From: Desulfobacterales bacterium
GTDB lineage: Bacteria; Desulfobacterota; Desulfobacteria; Desulfobacterales; JAHEIW01
Reading direction: 5' to 3'
Length of the DNA: 17,806 bases
NCBI GenBank assembly: GCA_030145015.1
Contig: JAQYWI010000112.1
Coordinates: 1-17,806 of the forward strand
The position numbers were made by a program, and so were the translations under genes. A model generated the notes under the pieces. The model was given only the letters and a program-made list of their open reading frames with translations, was not told the DNA's origin and ran no database searches. Below, piece by piece: positions 584 through 17,806 of the stretch (position 1 is the stretch's first letter; each line of letters opens with the position of its first letter).

Positions 584-613
584 GCGGCTTTCGCTCGCTG
601 GGTAAAGCGCTAC

Positions 614-1807: not shown

Positions 1808-1817
1808 GATTTTGAGA

Positions 1818-1848
1818 CATCGGGGGCGGTTAGCGTTCGCCCCCGATG
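1818..1848 (+). terminator. Strong GC-rich hairpin after the lectin-repeat gene
   Basis: A perfect 11-bp stem (CATCGGGGGCG paired with CGCCCCCGATG) around a 9-base loop begins 10 bases after the TAA stop. No T-run follows, so it is not a textbook intrinsic terminator, but position and stability suggest a transcript 3' end or RNA-protecting hairpin. The rest of 1849-2010 shows nothing else I can name. Confidence 0.55.
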
Positions 1849-2010
1849 CAGCATATGTTACCGATGTGACCGACTGTGTCTGACCGCCTTTTCGAATAGG
1901 CCAGCCGGTGAGCATGAATAGCAGGTGCATAGGCTTCGGTTAACGACGTCTACAACCCTCACTACAGGTGAACAAGCCTGATGAAACGCAAAAGGCTGGA
2001 GAGGTGTTCT

Positions 2011-5511: not shown

Positions 5512-5614
5512 AGGGAGGGCTCGGGGATCAAAGCGGGTGAATTCACCTGAAATTCGAAGAGGCGCAAAATATTTTGGATGGGCAAATGAAATATGATTTT
5601 TTTTGAAATGTGTA

Positions 5615-6439
5615 TCACAGAGAAGATACGGCCTCTGGGAACCCGTGTCTTAACGCCAGCTTTGCGAACATCTGAGCGAGCCCCGCTCCCAGTGTAAAGA
5701 CGGAACCGATGTCAAGATTTTCACCTGCGGTTTCATCGAAGAAAACATTGAGGCTGGATTCAAGGCCGTCTTCGGGCAGCCAGTAGCATATCATGATGGG
5801 GACTTTGGGCAGAGGCTGCAGAACGACGGAGATATCGGATTCAAATTGCTCTTCGACCTGCTTTCCGCTGAAAATGTGAACCAAATCGTCAAAGAGGTTG
5901 GTATAGATGTCAGCCACCCGTTTCATGGGCTCTTCGCAGCGTTTCTGAAAAAGCGGATAGCGTTCCTGGCCGTCTTTCAGCTCCCGGAACGAAAGCCAGC
6001 TTCCCGCGACCGGCAACCCTTTACCATAAAGAATGTAGCTTAAAAACGGAACGACCACCCACGGATTGACGTGGATATCCGCGTAAAGATGCCCCTCTGT
6101 ATCGACACTGAAGTCTTTGCCGAGGACCTTGAGTGTCAGCTTGTTGCCCGAAAACCTCGCCCCTACCCTGTTCGCTGCCGCTGCCAGGTCATGGCCGGCG
6201 ATCTCGCGCTTGAGCTGTTTCAGATATTCATCCCGGGTTTGTTCGGCCCTATTCTGATCTGCGGCTTCCCCGGAAAAGCGCTCGATTGTTTCGCGATCCA
6301 GTTTGGGGCACTCCGCCAGCTTTTTTTGACCCTGGAAGACGGCCCCCGCAAATGCCAGGCACGTCTTTTCGCCGCATTCGCGGCAATTTGACATGTCGAG
6401 CAGCTGAAAGATTTCCATGGCGTTTTTAGGCGGCGGCAT
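5615..6439 (-). CDS. Fe-S cluster protein with DUF3786 domain
   Basis: 274 residues, starting at an ATG preceded by AGAAGGA. Residues 8-45 form a 4Fe-4S domain of the type found in the large corrinoid/CODH-associated proteins, with the spacing C19-x2-C22-x4-C27-x16-C44 (NCRECGEKTC, then AECPKL). The rest (about 85-274) matches what I know as DUF3786, a domain of unknown function common in anaerobic Desulfobacterota and methanogens, containing WVVVPFLSYILYGKG and IMICYWLPEDG. No signal peptide or membrane span, so cytoplasmic. A redox or corrinoid-linked role is plausible but not shown. It ends convergently with the exported hydrolase (about 100 bases between stops) and lies 105 bases after the cysteine hydrolase gene, so it may have its own promoter. 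Confidence 0.85.
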   Translation of the reverse strand: MPPPKNAMEIFQLLDMSNCRECGEKTCLAFAGAVFQGQKKLAECPKLDRETIERFSGEAADQNRAEQTRDEYLKQLKREIAGHDLAAAANRVGARFSGNKLTLKVLGKDFSVDTEGHLYADIHVNPWVVVPFLSYILYGKGLPVAGSWLSFRELKDGQERYPLFQKRCEEPMKRVADIYTNLFDDLVHIFSGKQVEEQFESDISVVLQPLPKVPIMICYWLPEDGLESSLNVFFDETAGENLDIGSVFTLGAGLAQMFAKLALRHGFPEAVSSL

Positions 6440-6544
6440 ACAGGTTCCTTCTGTTTATCTACGCTTCAAAAGCCGTATATCATAAAAATGCGTGTGCCCA
6501 GAAACATATATGTTCGATCTTGATTTTCCATTACACAATCTTAT

Positions 6545-7168
6545 TCAACCCGAAACTTTTTCCAGTGTCGCGATGAGTGTTTCCGAGGTAGTGACGGTAC
6601 CGAAAAACTTACCGATATTATTAAGTGTCGCGGCATGCTCGGCGTTATCATAGGCACCGCAGCAATCCTCGATCAAAATAACGTTGTAATCGCGATGATA
6701 CCCATCCCTGGCGGTTGATTCCACGCAAACATTTGTGGCCACCCCGGTGACAAGGATGTTTTTTATCCCTTTGCTTCCCAGAATAAGAGCTAGGTCTGTA
6801 CCAATAAAGGCGCTGTAACGGTGTTTTGTTACGATGCAGTCGCCTTCCATTGGCGCCACATTGTAAAAATTGCTGCCCCAGCTGTCGGGCGGACAAATAC
6901 GCATCTTTTCACCCGCCCCTTCCATTCTCTTAAGCCAGGACGGCGAATTCGTCCAGTCACTGTGAATCGTCCTGATGAAAATGATCGGCAGATTAGACTC
7001 CCTGCATTTCTCGATCAGGGCGGAAAGATTCGATACGGCTTGCTCAACATGGTCGAGCGTGGCTGATTTGTATTTTGAAAAAACGCCTTGATTGTGACAA
7101 AAGTCATTTTGGACATCGACCACGAGCAAGGCGGTGTTTGCGCTACTGAGCTGAAAAGATTCTAACAT
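6545..7168 (-). CDS. Cysteine hydrolase of the isochorismatase-like superfamily
   Basis: 207 residues, usual for the family. The catalytic triad of the isochorismatase/nicotinamidase fold is visible: D18 in LLVVDVQNDF, K115 in VTKHRYSAF and C147 in TGVATNVCVESTARDGY. The cis-peptide segment GVAT precedes the nucleophile. The TNVCVESTARD wording is closest to amide-type members such as ureidoacrylate or N-carbamoyl amide hydrolases, but true substrate assignment from sequence is unreliable in this family. Start: ATG 7168 with AGAGGTG seven bases upstream. It follows dctM by 77 bases in the same direction, so it is probably the last gene of the TRAP operon. This suggests the imported compound, or a product from it, carries an amide, ureido or similar bond. 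Confidence 0.88.
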   Translation of the reverse strand: MLESFQLSSANTALLVVDVQNDFCHNQGVFSKYKSATLDHVEQAVSNLSALIEKCRESNLPIIFIRTIHSDWTNSPSWLKRMEGAGEKMRICPPDSWGSNFYNVAPMEGDCIVTKHRYSAFIGTDLALILGSKGIKNILVTGVATNVCVESTARDGYHRDYNVILIEDCCGAYDNAEHAATLNNIGKFFGTVTTSETLIATLEKVSG

Positions 7169-7245
7169 TGGTGCACCTCTGGCAGGAAGGATAATCGGCG
7201 TTTCGATACACTTTGATTCTACTTACCGATCGCCTCTAAATACTT

Positions 7246-8550
7246 TTAGAATTTCATGGTATCGGGCAAGAAAAGTGCAATTTCAGGAAAAATCGTAAGA
7301 ATAACCAGACAAACCAGCATGGCGATCCAAAAAGGCCATATCCCCCGAAAGATGGTGTACATGGGTACATCCTTGGCCACTCCTTTAATTACGAAAACAT
7401 TCACGCCAACCGGAGGGGTGATCAAAGACATCTCCATCATGATGACGATCATAACACCGAACCATATGGGGTCAAAGCCCAAACTCACCATCAGCGGATG
7501 AATAATGGGGACAGTCAGAACCAGTATGGAAAATCCTTCAAGAAACATCCCTAAGATGGTATAGAGAAACACCACGGCAGCAAGGATAACATACTTGGAG
7601 ACGGCCAACTCCAGCATGAAGTCGGCAAGCTCGGATGGGATCCGGGTTACGGCCAGGAAATAACCGAAAATATGGGCGCTGATCACAATGATAAATATCC
7701 AGGCCGTCGTTTGCGCTGTCATCCGCAAGGCGCCGACAAAATTTTTGCGGGTAATTTTTCTTTTGCCCACGGAAAAAATAAAAGCACCGAAAGCCCCGAT
7801 CCCGGCCGCTTCGGTGGGAGTGAATATCCCCGTATAAATCCCGCCCATCACCACCAGAAAAAGAACCAGCATGCTCCAGACACCCTTGAGCGCAATCAGC
7901 TTTTCCTTTAAGACAACCTGCTGACCCCGCGGGGCCACCTCCGGTTTAATCCTCACCTGCAGATAGATCGTCAACATAAACAGCAGCGCCAGAACGATCC
8001 CCGGCAAAATACCGGCTATAAAAAGTTTGCCCACAGACTGCTCGGTCAGAATTGCATAAAAAACAAAAGTTGCACTCGGCGGGATCAAAATCCCCAGAGT
8101 CCCGCCGGCAGCAACCGTACCGGTGGCAAGGGATTGACCGTATTTATATTTTTTCATCTCGGGCAACGCAACCGTGCCCATTGTTGCTGCGGTGGCCACA
8201 CTGGAACCGGAAATGGCAGCAAAGCCTGCACAGGCCCCGATGGTTGCCATGGCAAGACCGCCCCTGCGATGACCCAGCCAGCGCTCTACGGCGTAATAGA
8301 TCTCCCGGCTCATTCCCGATTGGGCTGCGAATTGCCCCATGAGGACAAACAGCGGGATGACACTCAAGGTATAGGAGGCGCCCCCGGCAAAAAATGTCAG
8401 GCCTAAAATGTGGAACCCGGCATCCAGGCTCCCTAAATAGACGTAACCCAGCCAGCCGACAAGGGCCATAACAAAACCGATGGGCATACCGCTGGCGAAT
8501 AGTAGAAAAAGAAGTACGATACCGATGATGCCTGCTACAAAAGGACTCAT
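7246..8550 (-). CDS. dctM: TRAP transporter large permease subunit DctM
   Basis: 434 residues of almost continuous hydrophobic segments, consistent with the usual 12-helix DctM membrane subunit. The signature stretch is present at about residues 115-190: SGSSVATAATMG, LPEMKKYKYGQSLATG, GTLGILIPPSA and LFIAGILPG. C-terminal TPPVGVNVFVIKG is also typical. It forms the transport channel of a sodium-driven tripartite ATP-independent periplasmic importer together with DctQ. Its ATG overlaps the TGA of dctQ by four bases (8547-8550), so the two are translationally coupled. Substrates of the family are mostly carboxylates. Confidence 0.95.
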   Translation of the reverse strand: MSPFVAGIIGIVLLFLLFASGMPIGFVMALVGWLGYVYLGSLDAGFHILGLTFFAGGASYTLSVIPLFVLMGQFAAQSGMSREIYYAVERWLGHRRGGLAMATIGACAGFAAISGSSVATAATMGTVALPEMKKYKYGQSLATGTVAAGGTLGILIPPSATFVFYAILTEQSVGKLFIAGILPGIVLALLFMLTIYLQVRIKPEVAPRGQQVVLKEKLIALKGVWSMLVLFLVVMGGIYTGIFTPTEAAGIGAFGAFIFSVGKRKITRKNFVGALRMTAQTTAWIFIIVISAHIFGYFLAVTRIPSELADFMLELAVSKYVILAAVVFLYTILGMFLEGFSILVLTVPIIHPLMVSLGFDPIWFGVMIVIMMEMSLITPPVGVNVFVIKGVAKDVPMYTIFRGIWPFWIAMLVCLVILTIFPEIALFLPDTMKF

Positions 8551-9062
8551 TTTTTTAATGCCCGCGCTAAAGATTGAAAAAATTGAACCAGAAGAACCAG
8601 GGAAAGCACCGCGAGGCCGAGCGCAACAAACAGCACAAAGGGGCTCACCGGTATAAACAGTTCGGCCGAAACATCATTTCTTTCCCAGGTGGTCCCGGCA
8701 TGCAGCACATTGCGCCAGGCAGCTAAAGCAAAAAGACCGAATGCGAGCAAACAGGTGATGGCCTCCAGGAGTGCCCGCACCCGGTCCGGAAGTTTCGTGA
8801 CTACCAGATCCACACTGACGTGGTCTTTGACGCTCATCGTAAAGCCCACCGAGGCAAAGACCAATACGGCCATCATCAGCTCGGTGACCTCGTAGCTACC
8901 GGTAATGGGGTTGTTGAAAATATAGCGCAGGCAGACGTCGGCTACCGTCAACATGACCATCAAGACAATAACGACCTGTGCAAACCGGTGGAGAAAGCGG
9001 CTTATCGGATAGATCGCCTTTTCTAAAATGTCACCAACACGGCTCAGCCAAGCATTCATCAT
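8547..9062 (-). CDS. dctQ: TRAP transporter small permease subunit DctQ
   Basis: About 171 residues with four membrane spans (about 22-45, 55-85, 92-115, 130-160) and the family signature ADVCLRYIFNNPITGSYEVTE. It partners DctM in the inner membrane. Three start codons stand in a row (TTG 9065, ATG 9062, ATG 9059) behind AAGGAATAGGGG; I chose the first ATG, but 9059 has better spacing from the GGGG. dctP ends only 19 bases upstream, and dctM overlaps the stop codon. Confidence 0.93.
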   Translation of the reverse strand: MMNAWLSRVGDILEKAIYPISRFLHRFAQVVIVLMVMLTVADVCLRYIFNNPITGSYEVTELMMAVLVFASVGFTMSVKDHVSVDLVVTKLPDRVRALLEAITCLLAFGLFALAAWRNVLHAGTTWERNDVSAELFIPVSPFVLFVALGLAVLSLVLLVQFFQSLARALKK

Positions 9063-9081
9063 CAACCCCTATTCCTTGCGA

Positions 9082-10119
9082 TTACTTACCCTGGAGCTGG
9101 CGGACCGCATCCAGCATTTCTTGGCCGGGTAGTCCCTTTGAGTTCATATCTTTGACCCAGTTATCGTAAATCGGTGCAAAGGTCTGCTCCCATTTCTTCT
9201 GCTCGGCGGCTGAAAGCGCATAGATCTCTTTGCCCAGGGATTTCCCCTTTTCGATCGCCTTGACACGATCTTTGTCATATTCCCGGGCGCTTTCAAAAAT
9301 ATATCTTTCGTTTATTCTTTCCATTATCGCCTGGATATCCTTCGGCAGGGAATCCCACTTTTTCTGGTTCATGGCGACGGCCATCGGCGTCGCCGTAAGT
9401 CCGGCATTGATGGAATATTTGCTGACATCGTAAATTCTGAAGGAGACCATCGCGGTAAAAGCGGTCACGACCCCGTCGAGCACCCCTTTTTCCATAGAAG
9501 TATAGACCTCGGTAATTGGCATGGTCACCGGACTGCCGCCCAAGGCTTTTACGGTCGCGGATTGAACCGCTCCCGAGCTTCTGATCTTGAGACCTTGCAT
9601 GTCGGCCATGCTGGTGACTTTCTTTTTGGAGGTGTGCAGCGTAAATGGCTCGCAGACAAAAAAGAACATCATTTTGGCGTCTTTGTAATCCGGCATGATA
9701 TATTTCTCGTAAACGCCGCTGCCAATGGCCGTATTGACCTCGGCCGAGCCACCCAGGAGCAACGGTAGATCGAAGACTGTCGAACGCGGGAAGCGTCCGG
9801 CCGTATAACCCGGCATAAAAAATGTAAGATCGGTAATGCCGCCGAGGGCCATATCCCATTGTTGCGGGGGTTTACCCAGCGCGCCACCCGGATAGAGCGT
9901 AATCTTTACCCGACCGCCGGTGAGTGACTCCACCTCTTTGGCATAGCCCTCGAATACGCGATGCAGCGTATGTTTGGTCGGCATCCAGTAGGCGAATTTC
10001 AATTCGATCGGTTTATCGGCCGCTGAAACAGTTTCCGGCAGGACAGCGGCGGAAACCATGAGAATGAAAAACACTGCGGTAAACCAAAAAGCCAAATTCG
10101 TAAGTCTTTTATTAGTCAT
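9082..10119 (-). CDS. dctP: TRAP transporter substrate-binding protein DctP
   Basis: 345 residues with a clear signal peptide (basic n-region, FWFTAVFFILMVSAAV core, cleavage near VSA|AD at 33), so periplasmic. Family features: KFAYWMPTKH start, PGGALG near 77-82, and the ligand-carboxylate-binding arginine in LKIRSSG (R180), followed by GGSPVTMPITEVYTSMEKGVLDG. It captures a carboxylate-bearing solute and delivers it to DctQM. Start is ATG 10119 behind an excellent GGGAGGTAATC. It is the first gene of the dctPQM-hydrolase operon; a promoter candidate (10286-10312) and an operator-like inverted repeat (10161-10179) lie upstream. The actual ligand cannot be told from sequence. Confidence 0.95.
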   Translation of the reverse strand: MTNKRLTNLAFWFTAVFFILMVSAAVLPETVSAADKPIELKFAYWMPTKHTLHRVFEGYAKEVESLTGGRVKITLYPGGALGKPPQQWDMALGGITDLTFFMPGYTAGRFPRSTVFDLPLLLGGSAEVNTAIGSGVYEKYIMPDYKDAKMMFFFVCEPFTLHTSKKKVTSMADMQGLKIRSSGAVQSATVKALGGSPVTMPITEVYTSMEKGVLDGVVTAFTAMVSFRIYDVSKYSINAGLTATPMAVAMNQKKWDSLPKDIQAIMERINERYIFESAREYDKDRVKAIEKGKSLGKEIYALSAAEQKKWEQTFAPIYDNWVKDMNSKGLPGQEMLDAVRQLQGK

Positions 10120-10160
10120 GATTACCTCCCTTCCGTGTGTTAACGATTAACGTTAGTTTG

Positions 10161-10179
10161 CTTACTAATTTTTGGTAAG
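10161..10179. promoter_or_regulatory. Operator-like inverted repeat before dctP
   Basis: CTTACTAA-TTT-TTGGTAAG: 8-bp half-sites matching at 7 of 8 positions around a 3-base spacer, 42 bases upstream of the dctP start. Size and symmetry fit a dimeric repressor such as a GntR/FadR protein. The TTGGT half resembles some FadR-type sites, but I see no second copy near the FadR gene. Confidence 0.4.
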
Positions 10180-10285
10180 AACTCGCTTTGGGAAGCGGAT
10201 TGATGAATCTTTTGAGTAGTGGAACGGATTCAGCCGCAGCCCGGCAACTGGAGAGATCAAGTCAGTAAATGCGACATCGGATTTA

Positions 10286-10312
10286 ATTATCGAAGTCGGG
10301 CTTGGCTGTCAA
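10286..10312 (-). promoter_or_regulatory. Candidate promoter of the dctPQM operon
   Basis: On the minus strand TTGACA (10312-10307), 15-base spacer, GATAAT (10291-10286). The -35 is perfect and the -10 matches 5 of 6, but the spacer is two bases short of ideal. It would give a leader of about 160 bases containing the inverted repeat at 10161-10179. The rest of 10120-10399 shows nothing else. Confidence 0.4.
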
Positions 10313-10399
10313 GGCCGTTTGTTCTTTAAGGTTTCAAATGATTCGCCAATTTGTTTAACCACCAAACTTTTGGCCCGGTTTCGTTGGGGCGATTCGCCG

Positions 10400-10582
10400 T
10401 CACGCGTCCAGCTCAGTCAGATCCGAAATATTTAGTTCCAGCATTTTAACACTGGCCAGAATCCGGACGGTATTACGGGCAATCGCCGGAAAATCCTGAC
10501 ATTGCTGATTTAGCTCTTCCGCGTTTTTTTTCAGGACCTGAATTTTGGTATCGATCTTTGTTATGTCCATTTGCGATCCCAT
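10400..10582 (-). CDS. Small conserved-looking protein, 60 residues, unknown function
   Basis: ATG 10582 has AAGGAG five bases upstream, which is strong support for a real small gene. The 60-residue product has no signal peptide or membrane span. It looks almost wholly helical with heptad-like hydrophobics (IDTKIQVLKKNAEELNQ, then VRILASVKMLELNISDL), one Cys at residue 23 and an acidic C-terminus. It lies 338 bases after the CoA-ligase stop (a repeat-rich gap) and 280 bases before dctP, same strand, so it is probably transcribed separately. I do not recognise the family. A helical-hairpin adaptor or antitoxin-like protein would fit the shape, but nothing in the sequence decides. Confidence 0.7.
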   Translation of the reverse strand: MGSQMDITKIDTKIQVLKKNAEELNQQCQDFPAIARNTVRILASVKMLELNISDLTELDA

Positions 10583-10608
10583 GAAATCTCCTTATCTTAT
10601 TTTTTTGG

Positions 10609-10635
10609 ACAGGATTAACAGGATATTCAGGATTA
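10609..10635. repeat. Three 9-bp ACAGGATTA-type units
   Basis: Units acaggatta, acaggatat and tcaggatta run head to tail just upstream of the 60-residue gene. Such ACAGGATTAACAGGATT strings recur in intergenic DNA of many Desulfobacterota as I recall, so this is likely a dispersed genomic repeat. Confidence 0.6.
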
Positions 10636-10646
10636 CTTTTTATTCT

Positions 10647-10673
10647 TTCTCACTTCCCGGATGGAAGTGAGAA
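10647..10673. repeat. Perfect 11-bp stem hairpin in the 10583-10919 gap
   Basis: TTCTCACTTCC, loop CGGAT, GGAAGTGAGAA. Neither strand has a following T-run, so it is not an obvious intrinsic terminator. It may be a small palindromic repeat. A further small CCGCC/GGCGG hairpin lies at 10682-10694. Confidence 0.55.
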
Positions 10674-10798
10674 AACTTAATCCGCCTCCGGCGGTTGTTC
10701 CATCCTCGCACATGAATTTTGTGCCGCAACTTTTAGCTTTATATTTATTCTTCAGTGTTCTTTTTTTTGCTAATTTATCAAATTAAAAATGAAGCCTG

Positions 10799-10923
10799 TT
10801 AAAATCTTAGTTTTTGTTCGAGGGCAAGGCGCGATTCGTTTCAAAAGCGGAGCGTACACGTAAGTACGTGAGCATTTTGAAACGGATCGTAACGCAGCCA
10901 TCGGGCAAAAAATGAGATTTTAA
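10799..10923. repeat. 125-bp imperfect palindrome overlapping the ligase stop codon
   Basis: Outer ends TTAAAATCT and GAGATTTTAA pair (one mismatch). Then come a GTTCGAGGGC / GCCCGATGGC pair, a CGATTCGTTTCAAAA / TTTTGAAACGGATCG pair, and a core CACGTA-AG-TACGTG. The whole can fold into one long hairpin with a few bulges. Its right end contains the TAA stop (10920-10922) of the CoA ligase. It may act as the 3' terminator or transcript cap of that gene, and has the form of a miniature inverted-repeat element. Confidence 0.7.
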
Positions 10924-12254
10924 CCTTTCTTGCGCAAGTCTTTAAAGCGTTTGGCCTTGACTTCATACCTCGGCAGCGTCTCGCAACCGCAAATCTCGAT
11001 ATCATATCGCAGATTGGTCTTGAGTCGGAGCTGATCGGCCAGTTTGTCCTCGATCAGCTGGCATTGATCCTCGGCTTCCGGTAGTACTTCCACCCTGAGT
11101 TTAATGCGATCGGTATCTCCGTCTTTTTCGACAATGACCTCATACTCATCCCCCAGGCCATCCAGGTCGCGAACGACCTCTTCGATGGCCGAAGGGGCCA
11201 AAAGCACACCTTTTACTTTGGTAATATCATCGGCGCGGCCAACAACGCCGCCTTTGATCAACCGGCTGGTTCGGTCGCATGGGCAGGGCTCGTCCGCCCA
11301 TTCAATCACATCTTTGGAATCAAAACGAACACAGGGCTGGGCCTGACGATCAAGCGCGGTGATAATCATTTTGCCCCGGTGTCCGGGTTCTTCGATGATC
11401 TCACCGCTCTCCACATCCTCGATTTCCACCAGAAACATGCCTTCATTGACATGCATGCCGCCGGGCTGCTCGTTACATTCAAACGACCAGGCCCCGATTT
11501 CCGTGGCTCCGGCATGATCGTAAACCTTTGCGCCCCAGGCCTGTTCCATTCTTCGTTTGGTGCTGGGGATGCTGGCGCCGGGTTCACCTGCACAGGTGAT
11601 CTTTTCGATGGTCAGCTGGGAGGGATCCAGATCCATTTTTGATTTCGCCGTTTCGGCCATTCCGAGAACATAGGTGGGTGTTGCCATCATGGCGGTGGCC
11701 TGCAGTTCCTGGATTTTTAAAATCCGGGCCTTGGTATCCAGCACCCCGCCCGGTACAACTTCACAGCCGAGCTTTTCGGCCGCATAATGCCCGGCCCAGA
11801 AGGCCACAAAAATATTATAGCCAAAGGGAATAAACACCCGGTCTCGAGGCCGGTACCCCTGAGCCCAGAGAATATAAGACCAGCATTCGGCCCACCACTC
11901 CCAGTCCTGCCAGGTATCGGGCTGATAGACCGGTTGTCCGGTGGTCCCGCTGGTCTGGCGGAATACGGCCACATCTTCAAGCGGCACGCACAGCGCATCG
12001 CCGTAAGGAAACGGATCTTTGCGCTGAATATCACGCATCATGGCTTTTTCCACCTTTGGGACCTGTTTGACATCCTCAAAAGACCGGATATCTTCAGGCT
12101 TTATGCCTGCTTGATCATATAGTTGCCGGTGGAATTTGGAGTGATCGTAGGTCCATTTAAAAATCCGTTTGAACTTGTTCAGTTGCAGTTGACGAATTTT
12201 TTCATGCGGCAGGGTTTCCAGAACCGGATTCCAATATTTTTGTTTGACGTCCAT
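10920..12254 (-). CDS. PaaK-family CoA ligase (phenylacetate-CoA ligase-like)
   Basis: 444 residues from ATG 12254, chosen over the in-frame TTG at 12260 because AAAAAGGG sits seven bases before the ATG. AMP-forming acid-CoA ligase of the short PaaK type: ATP-binding loop QTSGTTGQPV (100-109), YDHAGATEIG at 245-254 in place of the usual YGxTE, and later GRADDITKVKGVLLAPSAIEEV, the hinge and C-domain entry of PaaK proteins. The basic tail KAKRFKDLRKK may carry the catalytic lysine. Cytoplasmic. It would activate a carboxylic acid, probably aromatic, to its CoA thioester with ATP. Context: downstream of a membrane-anchored RdhA-like gene with a 197-base gap that holds a TATAAT box and a palindrome, so likely its own promoter. 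Two CPC-type cysteines (EPCPCDRT) are kept, as in other anaerobic PaaK homologues. The acid itself is unknown. Confidence 0.9.
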   Translation of the reverse strand: MDVKQKYWNPVLETLPHEKIRQLQLNKFKRIFKWTYDHSKFHRQLYDQAGIKPEDIRSFEDVKQVPKVEKAMMRDIQRKDPFPYGDALCVPLEDVAVFRQTSGTTGQPVYQPDTWQDWEWWAECWSYILWAQGYRPRDRVFIPFGYNIFVAFWAGHYAAEKLGCEVVPGGVLDTKARILKIQELQATAMMATPTYVLGMAETAKSKMDLDPSQLTIEKITCAGEPGASIPSTKRRMEQAWGAKVYDHAGATEIGAWSFECNEQPGGMHVNEGMFLVEIEDVESGEIIEEPGHRGKMIITALDRQAQPCVRFDSKDVIEWADEPCPCDRTSRLIKGGVVGRADDITKVKGVLLAPSAIEEVVRDLDGLGDEYEVIVEKDGDTDRIKLRVEVLPEAEDQCQLIEDKLADQLRLKTNLRYDIEICGCETLPRYEVKAKRFKDLRKKG

Positions 12255-12288
12255 AAGCAAGCCCTTTTTGCGGGTGTGATTAAATTAG

Positions 12289-12294
12289 ATTATA
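12289..12294 (-). promoter_or_regulatory. Consensus -10 box upstream of the CoA-ligase gene
   Basis: TATAAT on the minus strand, 34 bases before the ATG at 12254. The expected -35 region (ccaaaa) is poor, the usual look of an activator-dependent promoter. The palindrome at 12320-12341 stands just upstream. Confidence 0.45.
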
Positions 12295-12319
12295 GGGTTA
12301 CACTTGTCTCATTTTGGGC

Positions 12320-12341
12320 CGGATATATAAAGCTATATCCG
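12320..12341. promoter_or_regulatory. 22-bp palindrome at activator position before the CoA-ligase gene
   Basis: CGGATATA, six-base centre TAAAGC, TATATCCG: perfect 8-bp arms, centred about 39 bases upstream of the TATAAT box, that is near -48 from the expected transcription start. No T-run follows on the minus strand, so a terminator for the upstream rdhA-like gene is less likely than a regulator site. Confidence 0.45.
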
Positions 12342-12451
12342 AAAAATATCATTAAGGACCTATTACCTGAATCTTGCATGAAATTAATGAGAAGTTGGGG
12401 TTAAGTTTAATGGATGAACATCATTTTATCTTATTACCTTTCATGCAATAT

Positions 12452-13900
12452 TTAGGAATGAAACGCTTTAAACTGTGCCCATTTAGGGGCCGGTCTGGCC
12501 TTGGGGCGTTTGCCGTAAAAAATATCATCCATGACCGCAAAGAGGTGTCTTGAAATGATGTTACGACTTACCATCCATTTTATCAACTGATGGGGCATTG
12601 TGTTTGCGTGGCTCCAGGGGCACACCTTCATGCAGACATTGCAGTCGGTGCCGACTTTACCCCAGTAGTCAAAGCAGGTTTCAGCATTTAATTTCCAGCG
12701 CAGCGTCCCGTTGACCTCCTTTTGGTCATCCAGCGGGATGGAGTTTGAAGGACAACAGACTGCACATTTTTTACAGATTTTGCAAAAATGTTCAACACCA
12801 ATATCGACCGGCTTGTCAGGGACCAGGGGCAGATCGGTTGTGACAGCGCTCAGTCTCACGCGTGGGCCATATTTCCGGGTCAATAAATACCCGAGGCGAC
12901 CCGCCTCGCCCAGGCCAGCATCCACCGCCAGGGGGACCAGCAACTCTTCATAGTAGCGCAGTTGATCGGCCGTTGCCGAATAACCCATATTGACAACGAA
13001 GTTGGCCAATTGAGCGGCAATAAATGCGCCTTTGGCATAAGCACTCATGCTTTCCATGACTGTCGGTGTATGCGGGGCCGAGCCGATCATTTCAAAATCC
13101 ATTTCCTCGGCAAACACGATGGCATATTTATGCTTGGTTTCAAGGGGGCGGCCCCAGTCCTCCCAATTTTCGTGGAAAATCTCGCCTTTTTTCGAAAATA
13201 CCCAAAGGGGATTGATCTCAGTCACTCCCACCAATACGGCCCCCCTATTTTTGGCGAAACCTTTGACCCGCACGGTGGCTTCTTCAGGGCTCATTTCGAC
13301 CTTTTTGCCTTTACACTCCGGATGGGCCACGGGCTTAACCTTATCCAGGGATGAAAGCCACAGACAGAGGGACAGCGATGCAAGGGTGCCCGCCACATTG
13401 GGGCCATCATGGGGTCGGTCTACCCTCCCCGGATGACCCATGGGCCCGCCTTTTTCTCTTCTGGCGGCATCACCGGCTTCAAGTTCCGGATTTTCCTTGT
13501 AAAAGGCATTGTACTGATCCGATCCCGGTTTAAGGGTCCGGTTTCTGGCAAAAACGTGCTTGCGCTCATCAAATCTTTCGACTTCACCGACAATCAAACC
13601 CCGGGTGCCTTCCAAAGCGCGTTGATTCACCGGTGTCTGTCGCACACAAAAAAAAACAGCGAGAATTCCAATGATAAGAGAACTGATTAAGACAAAAAGG
13701 CCGGTCCCGGATAGAAAAAATCCGCTGGCCTGCCAGTAGATAAAAAGGATCAGGACAGCGAGCATGCCTAAAAATTGAATACCGCCAAATATTGAGGCCC
13801 GTTCTTCCTTTTCCCAGATAGAGGAGATCAAAAATGCAAGCCCGATAAAAGCCTGAACCGTAAGTCCCAGGATGACGATGTAACCTAACAAATTGATCAT
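12452..13900 (-). CDS. Membrane-anchored reductive dehalogenase-like Fe-S protein
   Basis: 482 residues. Instead of a Tat signal the N-terminus has three membrane helices (about 4-26, 37-58, 66-87). Charges (WEKEER between helices 1 and 2, RQTPVNQR after helix 3) put the catalytic part in the cytoplasm by the positive-inside rule. The catalytic part carries the RdhA signatures: Y288 in SMSAYAKG, matching the catalytic tyrosine region of RdhA; NMGYSA; AGLGEAGRLGYL; TTDLPLVPDKPVDIG; a ferredoxin motif C373-x2-C376-x2-C379-x3-C383-P; and a second C-x10-C-x2-C-x3-CPW. RdhA proteins use a corrinoid and two 4Fe-4S clusters to remove halogen from organic substrates. No separate RdhB anchor gene is seen nearby; the fused helices may replace it. 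Start ATG 13900 has a modest GAGG upstream. Substrate, and whether it is truly a dehalogenase, are unknown. Confidence 0.85.
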   Translation of the reverse strand: MINLLGYIVILGLTVQAFIGLAFLISSIWEKEERASIFGGIQFLGMLAVLILFIYWQASGFFLSGTGLFVLISSLIIGILAVFFCVRQTPVNQRALEGTRGLIVGEVERFDERKHVFARNRTLKPGSDQYNAFYKENPELEAGDAARREKGGPMGHPGRVDRPHDGPNVAGTLASLSLCLWLSSLDKVKPVAHPECKGKKVEMSPEEATVRVKGFAKNRGAVLVGVTEINPLWVFSKKGEIFHENWEDWGRPLETKHKYAIVFAEEMDFEMIGSAPHTPTVMESMSAYAKGAFIAAQLANFVVNMGYSATADQLRYYEELLVPLAVDAGLGEAGRLGYLLTRKYGPRVRLSAVTTDLPLVPDKPVDIGVEHFCKICKKCAVCCPSNSIPLDDQKEVNGTLRWKLNAETCFDYWGKVGTDCNVCMKVCPWSHANTMPHQLIKWMVSRNIISRHLFAVMDDIFYGKRPKARPAPKWAQFKAFHS

Positions 13901-13925
13901 TTGCTTACAGCCTCATTGTGTCGTT

Positions 13926-14035
13926 TAAATCTCAAATTTCAAGCACCAAATTCCAAATAAATCTCAAATCTCAATTTTTCAATGATCAAAACGGTTTGAT
14001 ATTTGTGTTTTGGGATTTGGGATTTTCTCAATTAA
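13926..14035. repeat. AT-rich run of CAAAT/CTCAAAT motifs with inverted counterpart
   Basis: The 197-base gap between the regulator and the membrane RdhA-like gene holds repeated tctcaaat, ccaaat and tcaaat units in the left half and ttgggattt, ttgatatttg in the right half, so the halves are loosely inverted copies around 13985. The style matches low-complexity intergenic repeats I associate with Desulfobacterota. No clear promoter could be picked inside it. Confidence 0.5.
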
Positions 14036-14097
14036 AGCACTCAACTGGACTAAAATATGCCACACGACTTTTGTAACATCTTTGTGGGACATGACAT

Positions 14098-14856
14098 TTA
14101 GGTGGTCCCTACCTCGTCAAGCTTGTTGAATTTTTTCAAGGCCTCCATGACATCCATGATATCTTTCCTGATAAGCCTGCCGGTCTCTTCAGGCTGCCGC
14201 CGGTTAATAACATCGAATATGGCTTTATGGACCTTGAAAAATTTTCTTTCCAGTGCAAGATCAAGATAAGTCAGGGTTCTTTCGGCCAGCAATTCAAATA
14301 CGGACTCCAACATCACCGCCAAGACCGGGTTGCCGGAAGCCCGGGCCAGCAACAGGTGGAATTCAAGATTATTTTGTTTAAGACGCACGGGGTCATCAAA
14401 ATGGGAGGCTGAATCTTCAAATAATACACGAAACTTTTCTAAGTCCGCATCACCGGCATGTAAGGCGGCTTGCCCGGCAATGTGCGGTTCGATCAACAGG
14501 CGGGCATCATAGAGATGGTCAACCGTGACTTCGCCGGAGGTAATCAGATTATTAAGCGATCTTTTGATGGGCGCATGATAGACATCGGAGACAAAAATCC
14601 CGCCGGTGGGCCCTTTTTTGATATTGACAAGACCGGATATCTCCAGTATCCGCATGGCTTCCCTGATTACGGAGCGGCTGACCTGAAATTCGTCTGCCAT
14701 CGCTTTTTCCGAAGGCAGGTTGGTGCCGACCTCAAGATTGTCCTCTAAAATTTTTTTCTGGATCAAATCCGCAATCTGATCGGAAAACCGTTTCTTCTTC
14801 AAGGGTCGAAACATGCCTTCCCCGATATATTTTTGCTTGGATGTTTCAGTTTCCAT
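14098..14856 (-). CDS. FadR-subfamily GntR transcriptional regulator
   Basis: 252 residues. The N-terminal winged helix-turn-helix (about 20-95) reads FSDQIADLIQKKIL, NLPSEKAMADEFQVSRSVIREAM, ILEISGLVNIKKGPTGGIFVS, the classic GntR pattern. The C-terminal part (about 105-240) is an all-helical FCD ligand domain: YDARLLIEPHIAGQAA, FHLLLARASGNP, VHKAIFDVINRRQPEE. The Asp and His residues that hold the metal in FCD domains (D in LYDARLL, H in EFHLLL, H in FKVHKAI) are in place. Such proteins bind small carboxylates and usually repress. It starts 53 bases after the soluble rdhA-like stop codon, likely in the same transcript. ATG 14856 has only a weak GGAAA upstream. The natural targets would be the flanking rdhA-like, ligase and TRAP units, but no operator shared by all three was found. 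Confidence 0.92.
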   Translation of the reverse strand: METETSKQKYIGEGMFRPLKKKRFSDQIADLIQKKILEDNLEVGTNLPSEKAMADEFQVSRSVIREAMRILEISGLVNIKKGPTGGIFVSDVYHAPIKRSLNNLITSGEVTVDHLYDARLLIEPHIAGQAALHAGDADLEKFRVLFEDSASHFDDPVRLKQNNLEFHLLLARASGNPVLAVMLESVFELLAERTLTYLDLALERKFFKVHKAIFDVINRRQPEETGRLIRKDIMDVMEALKKFNKLDEVGTT

Positions 14857-14909
14857 TGGCTATTTCCAAAAAATCTCTTTTTAAGTTTTAAAACTTTCAA
14901 TTAAGGTTT

Positions 14910-16097
14910 TTATTTGGGTTCCTTGAAATTACCCCTCGATCCGGCATGGGCCGGAACCACCAGCTCTCCATCCACATCTTCCAGATCCAGCCACCACTTG
15001 TTTTTAAGATTGGGCTTATCGTATCCAAAAAGCTGATCACCCCACACGGCAAAGTTTCGGGCCACGGGGATGTTGCGCATGGACCATTGTATAAATCGAT
15101 GAAACGGCGTGTAGGGTTTATTCCAGGGACAAACGCAAACACATACGCCGCAGCCGGACCCCAGCTTGTTTCCGACACGCTGTTTCGTACATTTTTCCAC
15201 ATCGTTGGGCCATTTTTCATAGCCGTTGTGCATGATTTTATCACCAAAAGGAATCGCCCCGGAAGGACAATAACGCGCACATTGTTTGCATTTCGCACAG
15301 AAATCCTGAACCCCGAAGTCAATGGGCTTATCTATCGCCAGCGGAAGATCTGTGGTAACGACCGCGGCTTTAAATCTCGGCCCCACAAAAGGATTGAGCA
15401 CCACATCTCCGATCCGACACATTTCGCCCAAACCGGCCCAGAGCAAAATCGGCGGAAGCACGATCTGATAATTGCGGGCATGATGCGCACGGGCAGGATA
15501 GCCCAGCCGGCGAATATAGTCGGCCAGGACACAGGCAATAAAACCCGAGGTCGAATAGGCTAAAAAACTCATCGAATTGCTGATCCAATCATTTCCAACG
15601 GTTGCATTTGCGGTTTTAAAATCCTGATCGATTAATATGGCAATGGCATATTTATGATTCAGCTCAACCGGTTCGCCGGTCTCCATACTGTTGCTGTAAA
15701 CCGCATAAGGGGGCAATTTGCAGATTCCGACCTGATCCGCACGCAGAAAATAGGCCGTCTCTTTTATGTGACGCGCCATCTTAACCGGGTCATCTGTTCC
15801 GGGGGCTTTTTGGGCGGCAGCAATACCGTCTACAACTTGACTCAGCGTAAACTGCATATTCACCAGGGCTCCCGATAAGGGGTGTTTGGCCACAAATCGA
15901 TGCCTTTCCTTGGAAAGCTGAGCCCCCCAATCGCCCCGCAAAGCCCGATTAAATCCGCTTTCACGCTCATCAACTCTTTTGATTTCATCGTCCTTGACCC
16001 GTGTCGTGGGACGGTCGACTCTTTTTAATATCTCCATCGGATAAGGATCTAATTTTTTGATTCTAAACGATCGTTGAAGTGTCGCTGCAATACTCAT
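14910..16097 (-). CDS. Soluble reductive dehalogenase-like corrinoid/Fe-S protein
   Basis: 395 residues, start ATG 16097 with GGAGGGG four bases upstream. There is no Tat motif, signal peptide or membrane helix, so it is cytoplasmic, unlike respiratory RdhA. Signatures: AYSTSG with Y181 in the catalytic tyrosine region, RRLGYPA, WAGLGEMCRIGDV, TTDLPLAIDKPIDFG, ferredoxin motif C-x2-C-x2-C-x3-CP (CAKCKQCARYCPSGAIP) and C-x12-C-x2-C-x3-CPW. It shares with the membrane-anchored gene the upstream D-E-R...F-x-R segment, so they are distant paralogues. The wording TTDLPL...DKP...FC separates them from the related epoxyqueuosine reductase QueG. It heads the cluster behind a good promoter. It lacks the fused flavin/ferredoxin reductase module of the known catabolic NpRdhA type, so an external electron donor would be needed. 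Function by family only. Confidence 0.87.
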   Translation of the reverse strand: MSIAATLQRSFRIKKLDPYPMEILKRVDRPTTRVKDDEIKRVDERESGFNRALRGDWGAQLSKERHRFVAKHPLSGALVNMQFTLSQVVDGIAAAQKAPGTDDPVKMARHIKETAYFLRADQVGICKLPPYAVYSNSMETGEPVELNHKYAIAILIDQDFKTANATVGNDWISNSMSFLAYSTSGFIACVLADYIRRLGYPARAHHARNYQIVLPPILLWAGLGEMCRIGDVVLNPFVGPRFKAAVVTTDLPLAIDKPIDFGVQDFCAKCKQCARYCPSGAIPFGDKIMHNGYEKWPNDVEKCTKQRVGNKLGSGCGVCVCVCPWNKPYTPFHRFIQWSMRNIPVARNFAVWGDQLFGYDKPNLKNKWWLDLEDVDGELVVPAHAGSRGNFKEPK

Positions 16098-16138
16098 TTT
16101 ACCCCTCCATCATAGATCAGACTTATTAAAAACATAAT

Positions 16139-16168
16139 CTATTAAGCACTACCTTATTTTCTTGTCAA
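16139..16168 (-). promoter_or_regulatory. Sigma70-type promoter for the rdhA-like/fadR unit
   Basis: TTGACA (16168-16163), 18-base spacer, TAATAG (16144-16139), about 42 bases before the ATG at 16097. The TTGTCAA bases at 16162-16168 also read forward as TTGTCA with TATTGG 17 bases on, a weak divergent promoter for the lipoprotein gene, so the two -35 boxes may coincide. Confidence 0.5.
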
Positions 16169-16260
16169 GCTAAAAAAAATTGCATATTGGTATTTCGTCA
16201 TTAAGTTATCCCAATAGATTAGGGGGGCTCAAAGGAAGCATTATAACAATGGAGGCTAAC

Positions 16261-16818
16261 ATGCGATCTAAAAAAAGAGTTTTACTAACACCCAGGCTAC
16301 TGGTGTTGTTTGTGTTAATAACCATTTGCATTGCCTGTGCGGGGAGTAATCCTTTAAGCCCGGGCGCATGGGTTGCAGAAGAAAATCGGATACCATTAAT
16401 GGATGGCGGACCGCATAAAGGAACCTGGAAAACACGAGACTTATCGATTCATTATGAGTATCAAGAAGCGGCACCAAGCTTGCAAGTTAAAGGTGTTATA
16501 GAATTAGCCAACTATATACCAATGGGTTTCAGCACGCTAGATTATCTCCATCTCTATATTCATTTTCTGGAGAACAACGGGACTGTTCTGGCCACACAAA
16601 GAATTAAAGCTTTTGGTTTTCGCCAGGATCTTCGCCTGCTTGAAAAGATGACCTTTAGCGGTAGCTTTGATTTGACTCAAGATCCCATTGCCATTGCATT
16701 TAGTTATAGCGGTAAAGCCAGTTCTGGAGGTGGAGGCCCTACGCCCAGGGGTTCGGGTAACGGAGGTTCAACAGATTGGGAATTCTGGAAGGTTCCGAGC
16801 CGCAGCCCCCCACAGTAG
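16261..16818 (+). CDS. Small predicted lipoprotein, unknown function
   Basis: Start chosen at ATG 16261 because GGAGG lies five bases upstream; the in-frame ATGs at 16180 and 16249 have nothing comparable. 185 residues. The basic n-region (MRSKKR) and hydrophobic core lead to IACAG with the likely lipidated Cys26; the -3 residue is not the usual Leu, so lipidation is probable, not certain. The mature part has beta-type strands (YHLYIHFLEN-like alternation, FSGSFDLTQDPIAIAFSYSG) and ends in a Gly-rich linker (SSGGGGPTPRGSGNGG) and a Trp-rich tail. I do not recognise the family. It is divergent from the rdhA-like gene, more AT-rich than the left part of the window, and is convergent with the minus-strand gene at 17046. 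Confidence 0.75.
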   Translation: MRSKKRVLLTPRLLVLFVLITICIACAGSNPLSPGAWVAEENRIPLMDGGPHKGTWKTRDLSIHYEYQEAAPSLQVKGVIELANYIPMGFSTLDYLHLYIHFLENNGTVLATQRIKAFGFRQDLRLLEKMTFSGSFDLTQDPIAIAFSYSGKASSGGGGPTPRGSGNGGSTDWEFWKVPSRSPPQ

Positions 16819-16897
16819 GGCCATTCAATCGGGGAATATCTACAAGCTAGGGATTAATATTAAATTTGGCGCTTATCCGGAAAGTCCAAGTTACCAT

Positions 16898-16966
16898 AAA
16901 AAAACCCCTGTGGGAGCGGCTTCCAGCCGCGAAATTAAATGATCGCGGCTGGAAGCCGCTCCCACA
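16898..16966. terminator. Perfect 24-bp inverted repeat with T-tract on minus strand
   Basis: Arms at 16909-16932 and 16943-16966 pair without mismatch (tgtgggagcggcttcc ... ), loop aattaaatga. On the minus strand the stem is followed by GGGG and then seven Ts (16904-16898), so it can terminate the gene ending at 17046; on plus it lies 90 bases after the lipoprotein stop. The sequence resembles the GGAGCGGCTTCCAGCCGCGA family of dispersed palindromes (REP-like) seen in several proteobacterial groups. The rest of 16819-17045 shows nothing else. Confidence 0.75.
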
Positions 16967-17045
16967 AACAATACAACTTGTTCTTTCCAGATAACCGGAT
17001 TAAATTTTAAAGGATCTGCCCGGGAAATTCGGCGGCCTCAGCGGT

Positions 17046-17806
17046 CTATTCGTGTGGCGCGATCTCAACGGCCACGTGAGCCAGGCGATTGACCATGCGC
17101 ATGGACTGGGCCCAATTCAGCGTGACCTCACCGGCAGACGGGACGGACAGTGTTCCGCCGACCAACGAAGACTTCCCGCCGCTGTTTTCCTGCGAGTTGA
17201 ATCGCCGGACGTGACCCTTGCCCCTGGGCCCCAATTTGCTCTTGTGGCCGCCACCCACGATGTCAACCACCCAGGCACCGTCGTTTTTTGTGGTAATCTG
17301 GGTAATTATTTTTCCCTTGTTGTTCTGCTTGCTGGTGACTAAATTCACCGGAGCCGCCTGCGCCGTATTGAAAAGCGAGACAGCCCCTAAATTGGCGCTC
17401 GTTACCGGACCGACAAAAGTGACCGTGATGTTGTGTTTACCGGAAGGTGGATTGAGAAGGTAGTACAGAGACACCTTGAGGAAATATTCTTTACCGCGCC
17501 ACATGGAGGAAAATTGAACCTCGGAGCCCGGTATCAGCGTCAATGTACGATCGCCGCAAGTGAGGCTGGAAATCACCATGTCACCGACGTTCTCCTTGCC
17601 CTCCTCTTCGGCCTGGACCCCCACGATCAGCATTCGGTTTGTGCCGGTGCCCACCTTAAAATTCTTCAAGGTCAGCACTTCCTTCTCCACGGGACTGATT
17701 ACCGGTAAGCTCGCCGAACGGGCAAAATCAAACTGGATTCCACCTGCCGCCGGGACTCCTTTTGTTTCTTCTGCTGTGGGGCTAACGTCCGAATGCGCAC
17801 ACGCCA
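17046..17806 (-). CDS. Exported beta-sandwich-type protein, 5' partial
   Basis: The frame stays open to the right edge: 38 more codons run upstream of the GTG at 17690, ending in ACAHSDVSPTAEE at the boundary. The GTG is therefore probably internal and the gene is 5' truncated. The ACAHS wording right after the edge may be a lipobox cysteine, which would make it a lipoprotein; the signal core lies outside. The visible part resembles a beta-rich module I know from bacterial surface proteins: L-x-x-F-x-V-G-x-G-x-N-R-M-L-I-V-G-V, then SSLTCGDRTLTLI, LYYLLNPPSGKHNITVTFVG and LGAVSLFNTAQ. A basic Gly/Lys-rich loop (GGGHKSKLGPRGKGHVRR) interrupts it. No catalytic motif; function unknown, envelope location likely. 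Confidence 0.75.
   Translation of the reverse strand, partial: ACAHSDVSPTAEETKGVPAAGGIQFDFARSASLPVISPVEKEVLTLKNFKVGTGTNRMLIVGVQAEEEGKENVGDMVISSLTCGDRTLTLIPGSEVQFSSMWRGKEYFLKVSLYYLLNPPSGKHNITVTFVGPVTSANLGAVSLFNTAQAAPVNLVTSKQNNKGKIITQITTKNDGAWVVDIVGGGHKSKLGPRGKGHVRRFNSQENSGGKSSLVGGTLSVPSAGEVTLNWAQSMRMVNRLAHVAVEIAPHE

What the first reader, a model, noticed from the sequence alone, without database searches (positions are those of the whole stretch)
12452..16097. Two Tat-less RdhA-like proteins with a FadR regulator, CoA ligase and TRAP transporter: candidate cytoplasmic halo-acid or reductive-cleavage pathway
The sequence directly shows two distant RdhA paralogues (both ferredoxin motifs, catalytic-tyrosine region, TTDLPL...DKP) flanking an FCD-type regulator, followed in the same direction by a PaaK-family CoA ligase and, after 338 plus 280 bases of spacer, by dctPQM and an amidase-type hydrolase. 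RdhA enzymes of respiring bacteria are Tat-exported; here neither protein is. Together the genes could import an organic acid, make its CoA ester and reductively remove a substituent inside the cell. The pathway and substrate are inference; the families are established.
Basis: partly seen in the sequence, partly recalled or inferred. Interest (0 to 1): 0.75.

Follow-up and report, generated by a model that had tools for sequence, protein, structure and literature searches.

The report
Regulated intracellular dehalogenase pair with transporter
A sediment sulfate-reducer relative carries two B12-type dehalogenase genes, one soluble and one anchored in the membrane, next to a regulator, a CoA ligase and an acid importer, and some related bacteria keep these genes and the same predicted control site together, which suggests a pathway that strips halogens from imported aromatic acids inside the cell.

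Summary
Both proteins are RDH-family members (TIGR02486 above cut-off), not QueG. RdhA1 (16097-14910) is a soluble NpRdhA/BhbA-type catabolic dehalogenase: 45.5% identical to NpRdhA, in a supported clade with it, four phenol-binding/proton-donor residues kept. RdhA2 (13900-12452) has three N-terminal membrane helices and the RdhB-like EXE motif: it is one of the 'hybrid' RDases published in 2019, its catalytic domain predicted to face the cytoplasm. Gene order is conserved in a subset of relatives: RdhA1-FCD-RdhA2 in three other places, FCD with one dehalogenase plus TRAP genes in others. New here: a palindromic operator-like site behind a TTGACA promoter, before RdhA1 in the window and before RdhA1 or FCD at seven related places. 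Most likely an FCD-controlled module that imports a carboxylated ortho-halophenol, removes halogen inside the cell and makes a CoA ester. Dehalogenase type, motif and synteny are shown computationally; substrate, electron donor, repressor action and pathway are inferred. Verdict: new variant of a known kind.

The parts
16163..16168 (-). TTGACA, predicted -35 element of the rdhA1 promoter; the -10 would lie near 16140-16145 (TTAATA)
   Evidence: TTGACA lies 35-40 bases before the operator-like motif at 9 of 9 rdh-cluster sites (window included) and at one contig-end site; the -10 position is read from the sequence
16113..16130 (-). predicted FCD operator TTTAATAAGTCTGATCTA
   Evidence: single match in the window to a pattern derived from this and related promoters, 0 in 200 shuffles; exact 13-base core at 7 further distinct places among 288 loci
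14910..16097 (-). RdhA1, soluble NpRdhA/BhbA-type reductive dehalogenase (395 aa)
   Evidence: TIGR02486 197.8 bits; 45.5% identity to the NpRdhA catalytic part; clade with NpRdhA/BhbA, SH-aLRT 100; S177, Y181, K243, R307 = NpRdhA S422, Y426, K488, R552
14098..14856 (-). GntR/FCD transcription factor (252 aa)
   Evidence: PF00392 and PF07729 above cut-off
12452..13900 (-). RdhA2, membrane-anchored hybrid reductive dehalogenase, three N-terminal helices (482 aa)
10920..12260 (-). PaaK-like AMP-forming CoA ligase (446 aa)
   Evidence: PF00501 and PF14535 above cut-off; below the TIGR02155 cut-off; best PDB match 2-hydroxyisobutyryl-CoA synthetase 219.5 bits, then phenylacetate-CoA ligase 203.5
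9082..10119 (-). DctP, TRAP solute-binding protein
   Evidence: PF03480 172.5 bits
8547..9065 (-). DctQ, TRAP small permease
   Evidence: PF04290
7246..8550 (-). DctM, TRAP large permease
   Evidence: PF06808; 57-62% identical to six rdh-associated DctM, 42-47% to ligase-associated ones; its place in the tree is an unresolved fork outside both groups
6545..7168 (-). isochorismatase-family hydrolase; membership of the module uncertain
   Evidence: PF00857; among the loci mapped only a 24% match (L103/L135)
5615..6439 (-). FeS + DUF3786 protein; syntenic neighbour in the closest relative
   Evidence: PF04060, PF12654; 86% homologue after PaaK in L135

Best explanation
This is an inducible catabolic module for a carboxylated ortho-halogenated phenol (for example a 3-halo-4-hydroxyphenylacetate or -benzoate). 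A TRAP transporter brings the acid in. The FCD regulator, a repressor bound just after the promoter, lets go when the acid or a product binds it. RdhA1 in the cytoplasm removes the ortho halogen by cobalamin chemistry, with Y181 as proton donor and S177/K243/R307 holding the phenol oxygen. RdhA2 does a related dehalogenation at the inner face of the membrane, drawing electrons through its RdhB-like helices, probably from menaquinol. The PaaK-like ligase then makes a CoA ester for ring degradation. Shown by computation: family, clade, catalytic residues, membrane helices, synteny, operator-like motif. Inferred: substrate, electron donors, repressor action, order of steps, division of labour.
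For: Clade with NpRdhA/BhbA. In 121 RdhA1 sequences (window plus the 120 best hits) the counterparts of Y426, K488 and R552 are kept in 121, S422 in 120, and K307, which salt-bridges the substrate carboxylate at the site entrance, is R in 100 (roles from PMC7565698 passages). All characterised catabolic RdhAs act on ortho-halophenols and one supports growth on 3-bromo-4-hydroxyphenylacetate (PMC10463259 passages). RdhA2 keeps Y246/R305 of PceA in 121 of 121 and EXE in 119 of 121; the charge pattern predicts a cytoplasmic C-terminus. FCD plus TRAP genes occur with RdhA1 only (L273; L284 and L287 with DctP only), with RdhA2 only (L149, L150; also L142 and L148, whose contigs end close upstream) or with both (L153, L159). 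CoA ligases beside RdhA2 or RdhA1 in several lineages. Operator-like motif.
Against: No activity has been shown for either subclass in these bacteria. The ligase's nearest solved relative is 2-hydroxyisobutyryl-CoA synthetase. The FCD protein's best named models are hydroxy- and sugar-acid regulators, all below cut-off. GlcD/GlcF-like genes lie near some hybrids. dctPQM is missing between PaaK and DUF3786 in the closest relative and lies 800 bases away, without the motif, in the window. DctP, which sets specificity, is only 35-39% identical to 11 of 13 rdh-linked DctP and lower to the other two. Of 35 distinct hybrids at 55% or more identity, 23 have none of these partners within reach, some on short contigs. 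At up to one mismatch the motif is not enriched over its control. No ferredoxin or reductase gene is among the annotated genes of the cluster.
Confidence: 0.5

Rival explanations
1. The module handles an aliphatic or hydroxy acid instead (halo-hydroxy acid, or another reductive cleavage), not a halophenol.
For: Best solved ligase relative is 2-hydroxyisobutyryl-CoA synthetase. The FCD protein scores best to NanR, LldR and GlcC models, all below cut-off. FAD_binding_4 and CCG-domain genes follow a hybrid in L152 and their cluster mates lie near hybrids in L142 and L148. HpaB-family, AFOR and acyl-CoA-synthetase-type genes lie near other hybrids (L141, L144, L155).
Against: RdhA1 keeps all phenol-oxygen ligands of NpRdhA and clades with ortho-halophenol enzymes.
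Confidence: 0.22
2. RdhA1/RdhA2 serve as electron sink or detoxification; the ligase and transporter are ordinary acid-uptake genes that only share the place.
For: Cofactor re-oxidation and detoxification are proposed roles in print (PMC6129605 passages; PMC6797604). The ligase occurs in 70 of 389 order genomes, RdhA1 in 15 of 389, both at E<=1e-120. dctPQM-hydrolase is an insertion or deletion relative to L135.
Against: Repeated co-location of FCD, TRAP, ligase and either dehalogenase in different lineages, and one shared operator-like motif.
Confidence: 0.2
3. The window is a chimeric contig that joins an rdh region to an unrelated TRAP region at about 10188.
For: The held genome's contig C89 stops at window 10188, and 0 of the 12 same-genus genomes has an RDH match.
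Against: In L135 (CSMAG_771) homologues of genes on both sides (73% right-end protein, RdhA1 to PaaK at 82-91%, DUF3786 at 86%) lie within about 8.4 kb.
Confidence: 0.06

Closest known systems
Catabolic reductive dehalogenases NpRdhA / BhbA / JtRdhA
   Same: RdhA1: fold family, clade, phenol-binding and proton-donor residues, no Tat signal (JtRdhA from passages only, not in my tree)
   Different: Host lineage is of sulfate-reducer type (inferred); no N-terminal extra RdhA-like domain, no reductase domain; FCD regulator, TRAP and PaaK-like ligase beside it; NpRdhA A419 is N in 91 of 121 and M423 is F in 115 of 121
Hybrid putative RDases with N-terminal membrane helices (Atashgahi 2019; Jochum 2018)
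   Same: RdhA2: three helices, EXE, both FeS motifs, no adjacent rdhB; 482 aa like the Aarhus Bay SAG2 protein
   Different: Here in one cluster with a catabolic RdhA, a regulator, a ligase and a TRAP system; the parts and passages I saw give no such gene context
Respiratory RdhAB (PceA2B2)
   Same: RdhA2 = RdhA plus RdhB-like helices in one chain; Y246/R305 pair kept
   Different: No Tat, no adjacent rdhB, catalytic domain predicted on the cytoplasmic side
Asgard RDase neighbourhoods (PMC6737245)
   Same: Proposes dehalogenation of aromatic amino-acid derivatives feeding a phenylacetyl-CoA ligase pathway
   Different: Archaeal, lineage-specific synteny, no gene fusion found; the passages seen mention no FCD/TRAP module

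Membership tests
RDH (TIGR02486) | score above the curated cut-off of 160.35 bits | tested here: met
   197.8 and 184.5 bits
QueG epoxyqueuosine reductase | TIGR00276 cut-off of 200 bits | tested here: not met
   30.4 and 41.4 bits
NpRdhA-type catabolic RdhA (RdhA1) | clade with NpRdhA and BhbA | tested here: met
   SH-aLRT 100, quick tree without bootstrap
NpRdhA-type catabolic RdhA (RdhA1) | S422, Y426, K488, R552 | tested here: met
   S177, Y181, K243, R307; kept in 120, 121, 121, 121 of 121
NpRdhA-type catabolic RdhA (RdhA1) | no Tat signal | tested here: met
   no RRx[FL] in residues 1-60
NpRdhA-type catabolic RdhA (RdhA1) | dehalogenates ortho-halophenols | not testable with these tools
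   needs enzyme assay
Hybrid membrane RDase (RdhA2) | three N-terminal membrane helices | tested here: met
   helices 2-29, 33-59, 65-86, block pLDDT above 90
Hybrid membrane RDase (RdhA2) | EXE motif in the first loop | tested here: met
   E30, E32; 119 of 121 sequences
Hybrid membrane RDase (RdhA2) | separate clade from respiratory RdhA | tested here: met
   94-row clade, SH-aLRT 97
Respiratory RdhAB | Tat signal and adjacent rdhB | tested here: not met
   no Tat motif; gaps after RdhA1, FCD and RdhA2 are 53, 197 and 191 bases, too short for rdhB
PaaK (TIGR02155 equivalog) | curated cut-off of 646.3 bits | tested here: not met
   235.8 bits
FadR/FCD GntR regulators | GntR HTH plus FCD domain | tested here: met
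   62.3 and 74.9 bits
FadR/FCD GntR regulators | operator TNGTNNNACNA | tested here: inconclusive
   core GT-N3-AC fits several relatives' sites, the flanking T/A do not, and the window site reads GT-CTG-AT
TRAP transporter | DctP, DctQ, DctM together | tested here: met
   PF03480, PF04290, PF06808 above cut-off

The most novel reading that the evidence does not exclude
A previously undescribed FCD regulon in Desulfobacterota pairs a soluble NpRdhA-type dehalogenase with a menaquinol-linked hybrid dehalogenase whose catalytic domain faces the cytoplasm; the two act on the same imported halo-aryl acid, the hybrid either as second enzyme or as the route by which membrane electrons reach intracellular dehalogenation.
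Probability: 0.25. Interest if true: 0.75.

Novelty: new variant of a known kind. Interest (0 to 1): 0.55.

Why it matters
The 2019 paper on hybrid RDases lists their function, catabolic use and substrates as open questions, and a 2023 structure paper still says that their function and activity remain to be assessed. A conserved cluster with a catabolic RdhA whose active site points to ortho-halophenolic acids, plus a named operator-like site, gives a concrete substrate class, an inducer test and a binding site to assay. It also ties intracellular dehalogenation to uncultured sediment bacteria and to a worm symbiont. My searches listed no paper describing this gene cluster or operator (open-licence PMC only, mostly seen as listings).

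Tried and rejected
PF13486 as the family test: it hits neither protein and rang in no control genome, so it was dropped. TIGR02486 over G000 gave 0 matches: the rdh half is not in that assembly.

Selenocysteine idea: six relatives were flagged '1 TGA'. In those six, the stops seen (two) were C-terminal and the other four matches held no stop; rejected. Rows flagged TAA or TAG were not looked at.

Cobalamin riboswitch or other RNA: four weak matches, none at or above a gathering score.

FadR-type regex in spacers: one stray hit in the PaaK-dctP gap; the real motif came from aligning promoters, so the pattern is partly derived from the sites it then finds.

Genome-wide regulon search of 9 genomes with up to one mismatch: 17 matches against 23 of the reversed control, so NOT enriched at that stringency. 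Three of the 17 are second readings of a palindrome; the 14 distinct sites are 8 at rdh clusters, 1 at a contig end (G234:C1294) and 5 elsewhere. Of 7 exact sites, 6 are at rdh clusters. Over all loci the 13-base core has 10 distinct sites against 1 for the reversed control, but 3 of the 10 were fetched by the pattern itself, and one of those (L312) has no TTGACA and no match to a window gene near it.

First RdhA2 model (18 sequences) was poor, pLDDT 53.4, and was not used. In VIA-align, the rows confined to about model residues 1-66 were unrelated helical pairs such as seryl-tRNA synthetase. PceB was not listed, which excludes nothing.

Chimera idea: see rivals. Taxon labels such as Myxococcota were not relied on.

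Rows: 203 RDH-like ORFs were reduced to 145 with distinct C-termini, plus 23 others, 168 tree rows. A loose Tat pattern flagged 2 of the RdhA1-type rows and 2 of the membrane clade. Neighbour counts detect only relatives of window proteins at blastp E<=1e-8.
Full report
1. What is there. On the - strand the window reads RdhA1 (16097-14910), FCD regulator (14856-14098), RdhA2 (13900-12452), PaaK-like ligase (12260-10920), an 800-base gap, dctP (10119-9082), dctQ (9065-8547), dctM (8550-7246), an isochorismatase-family hydrolase (7168-6545) and a FeS+DUF3786 protein (6439-5615). Both Rdh proteins pass TIGR02486 and fail TIGR00276/QueG by a wide margin.

2. RdhA1. Its best solved relative is NpRdhA (353 bits over residues 16-383; 45.5% identity over 367 aa). 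In a 168-row tree of catalytic cores it falls with NpRdhA, BhbA and the Nitratireductor OM-1 protein in a 31-row clade (SH-aLRT 100; quick search, no bootstrap). Across 121 sequences (the window and the 120 best of the 4634 hits), NpRdhA Y426, K488 and R552 are kept in 121, S422 in 120, K307 is R in 100, A419 is N in 91, M423 is F in 115 and N452 is A in 117. In NpRdhA, S422/K488/R552 bind the substrate hydroxyl, Y426 is the proposed proton donor, K307 salt-bridges the benzoate in a binding mode at the entrance, and A419 lines the pocket of the second bromine; A419M shifts relative activity toward the mono-brominated substrate (PMC7565698, passages). The conserved set predicts an ortho-halogenated phenol, probably with a carboxylate, with a changed pocket for a second halogen. 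This is inference from residues.

4. Synteny. Closest: CSMAG_771 (L135 = L103) has a 73% homologue of the window's right-end protein, a 50% one of the small ORF at 16180-16818, then RdhA1 90%, FCD 85%, RdhA2 82%, PaaK 91%, DUF3786 86%, with no TRAP match in the stretch. The Olavius symbiont Delta 1 (L153 = L104) has RdhA1 85%, FCD 71%, RdhA2 61%, a second FCD 62%, dctPQM, PaaK 87%. HGW-Deltaproteobacteria-15 (L159) has two RdhA1 (66%, 78%), FCD, RdhA2, dctPQM. L138 has RdhA1 82%, RdhA2, dctP. L142, L148, L149 and L150 have FCD, RdhA2, TRAP (the contigs of L142 and L148 end close upstream). Counting 54 distinct hybrid genes: of 35 at 55% or more identity, RdhA1 is near in 4, FCD in 7, TRAP in 7, PaaK in 5, any in 12 (11 of the 19 with over 1.5 kb on both sides); of 19 below 55%, any in 2. 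So the association is real but belongs to a subset, and L138 and L159 entered through the RdhA2 search.

5. An RdhA1-centred look. A phylum sample found RdhA1 in 17 of 395 genomes; I took 16 stretches from 13 of the 17. RdhA1-FCD-dctPQM stands in L273 (81%/63%), RdhA1-FCD-DctP in L284 and L287 (FCD 41%), RdhA1 next to DctP in L280, PaaK (67%) next to RdhA1 in L277, and PaaK (76%) on the other strand about 2.4 kb from RdhA1 in L281; no RdhA2 match above 33% was seen in the 16 stretches, and the other 10 stretches show none of these partners adjacent to RdhA1. Thus FCD+TRAP takes RdhA1, RdhA2 or both, which suggests that the two enzymes serve the same class of compound (inference). In the order sample, at E<=1e-120, RdhA1 is in 15 of 389 genomes and the ligase in 70 of 389. 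Full-length hybrid matches (starting before residue 25) are in 15 of 195 relatives.

6. Control site. Aligned promoters showed TTGACA, an AT-rich -10 region and then TTTAATA(A/G)GTC(A/T)GA(C/T)(C/T)TA. In the window it occurs once, 15 bases before the RdhA1 start, against 0 in 200 shuffles at up to 2 mismatches (the pattern was made from these promoters). The 13-base core occurs in 11 of 288 loci, which are 7 distinct places: before RdhA1 in L135, L159 and L273, before FCD in L142, L149 and L150 (in L150 inside the mechanical ORF's N-terminal extension, so the true start would be later), and before the second FCD in L153. Among the loci mapped these are all that have an FCD of 60% or more, except L148, whose contig begins inside FCD. 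TTGACA lies 35-40 bases upstream at 9 of 9 rdh-cluster sites (window and L306 included) and at G234:C1294, and at 0 of 5 sites elsewhere. A 16-base search of 9 genomes found 7 exact sites, 6 of them at rdh clusters, including one before a short RdhA1 N-terminal piece with a divergent PaaK-like gene in G767 (L306). With up to one mismatch there is no enrichment over the reversed control (17 against 23). The core GT-N3-AC of several relatives' sites agrees with the FadR-subfamily consensus TNGTNNNACNA (Rigali et al., as quoted in PMC2230225, passage) but the flanks do not, and the window site has GT-N3-AT. That the FCD protein binds it as a repressor is inferred from position. Many deltaproteobacterial RDase clusters instead carry sigma-54 activators (22 genes in 31 clusters; PMC6299228, passages).

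7. Transport and ligase. The window DctM is 57-62% identical to six rdh-associated DctM, 41-48% to four other DctM of rdh loci (L150, L153, the third of L280, second set of L159; two further, fused-length L280 forms are at 24-26%), and 42-47% to ligase-associated ones without rdh at that place; in the tree it sits at an unresolved fork, outside the supported six-row rdh group and outside the group with the ligase-associated rows. DctP is not specifically close (35-39% to 11 of 13 rdh loci's nearest DctP, 31-36% to ligase-linked). The ligase family is ambiguous: 2-hydroxyisobutyryl-CoA synthetase 219.5 bits, phenylacetate-CoA ligase 203.5 bits. Elsewhere other AMP-forming ligases lie within about 1.6 kb of RdhA1-type genes (L125, L126, L128) and near a hybrid (L141).

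8. Provenance. The held genome G000 contains only window 98-10188, and none of the 12 same-genus genomes has an RDH match. Because L135 holds homologues from both sides of 10188 within about 8.4 kb, I do not read the window as chimeric, but the PaaK-dctP junction itself is seen only in the window.

9. Verdict. Known parts in a conserved, apparently co-regulated combination that my searches did not find in print. The nearest published idea seen is for Asgard archaea (PMC6737245, passages). Substrate, electron supply and physiology are untested.

Noticed in passing
window 98-10188 and 10189-17806: The genome given as the window's own (G000) holds only the first part, as contig C89 at 99.98%; the rdh half is absent from it and RDH matches are absent from the 12 same-genus genomes.
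   Followed up: partly
window 1981-5511: 1176-aa ORF with a tandem internal duplication (3941-4399 and 4433-4891, 83% identical DNA, from the self-match); its C-terminus looks like an M23 peptidase (by eye, no call).
   Followed up: no
window 13927-14026 and 16905-16970: Short repeats that recur in many G000 contigs (22 matches in all to window 10500-17500); the second scores to mir-3747 below the gathering score. They hint that the rdh half shares interspersed repeats with G000.
   Followed up: no
L306 476-742 (G767:C21): A short RdhA1 N-terminal piece behind a perfect operator-like site, followed by a different ORF, with a divergent PaaK-like ORF: looks like a decayed copy.
   Followed up: no
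L106-L109, L116, L119, L120: The same PaaK-like ligase family sits near a different TRAP type in genomes without rdh at that place, so the ligase and TRAP pair has a life of its own.
   Followed up: partly
L142, L148, L152: FAD_binding_4 and CCG/Fer4 genes (GlcD/GlcF-like) lie near hybrid RDases; possible hydroxy-acid or electron-transfer link.
   Followed up: partly
L273-L276 (G724): One genome with four RdhA1-type genes, in different neighbourhoods.
   Followed up: no
window 5615-6439: FeS+DUF3786 protein with an N-terminal domain like the acetyl-CoA decarbonylase/synthase gamma subunit (below cut-off), kept after PaaK in L135; possible corrinoid link.
   Followed up: no
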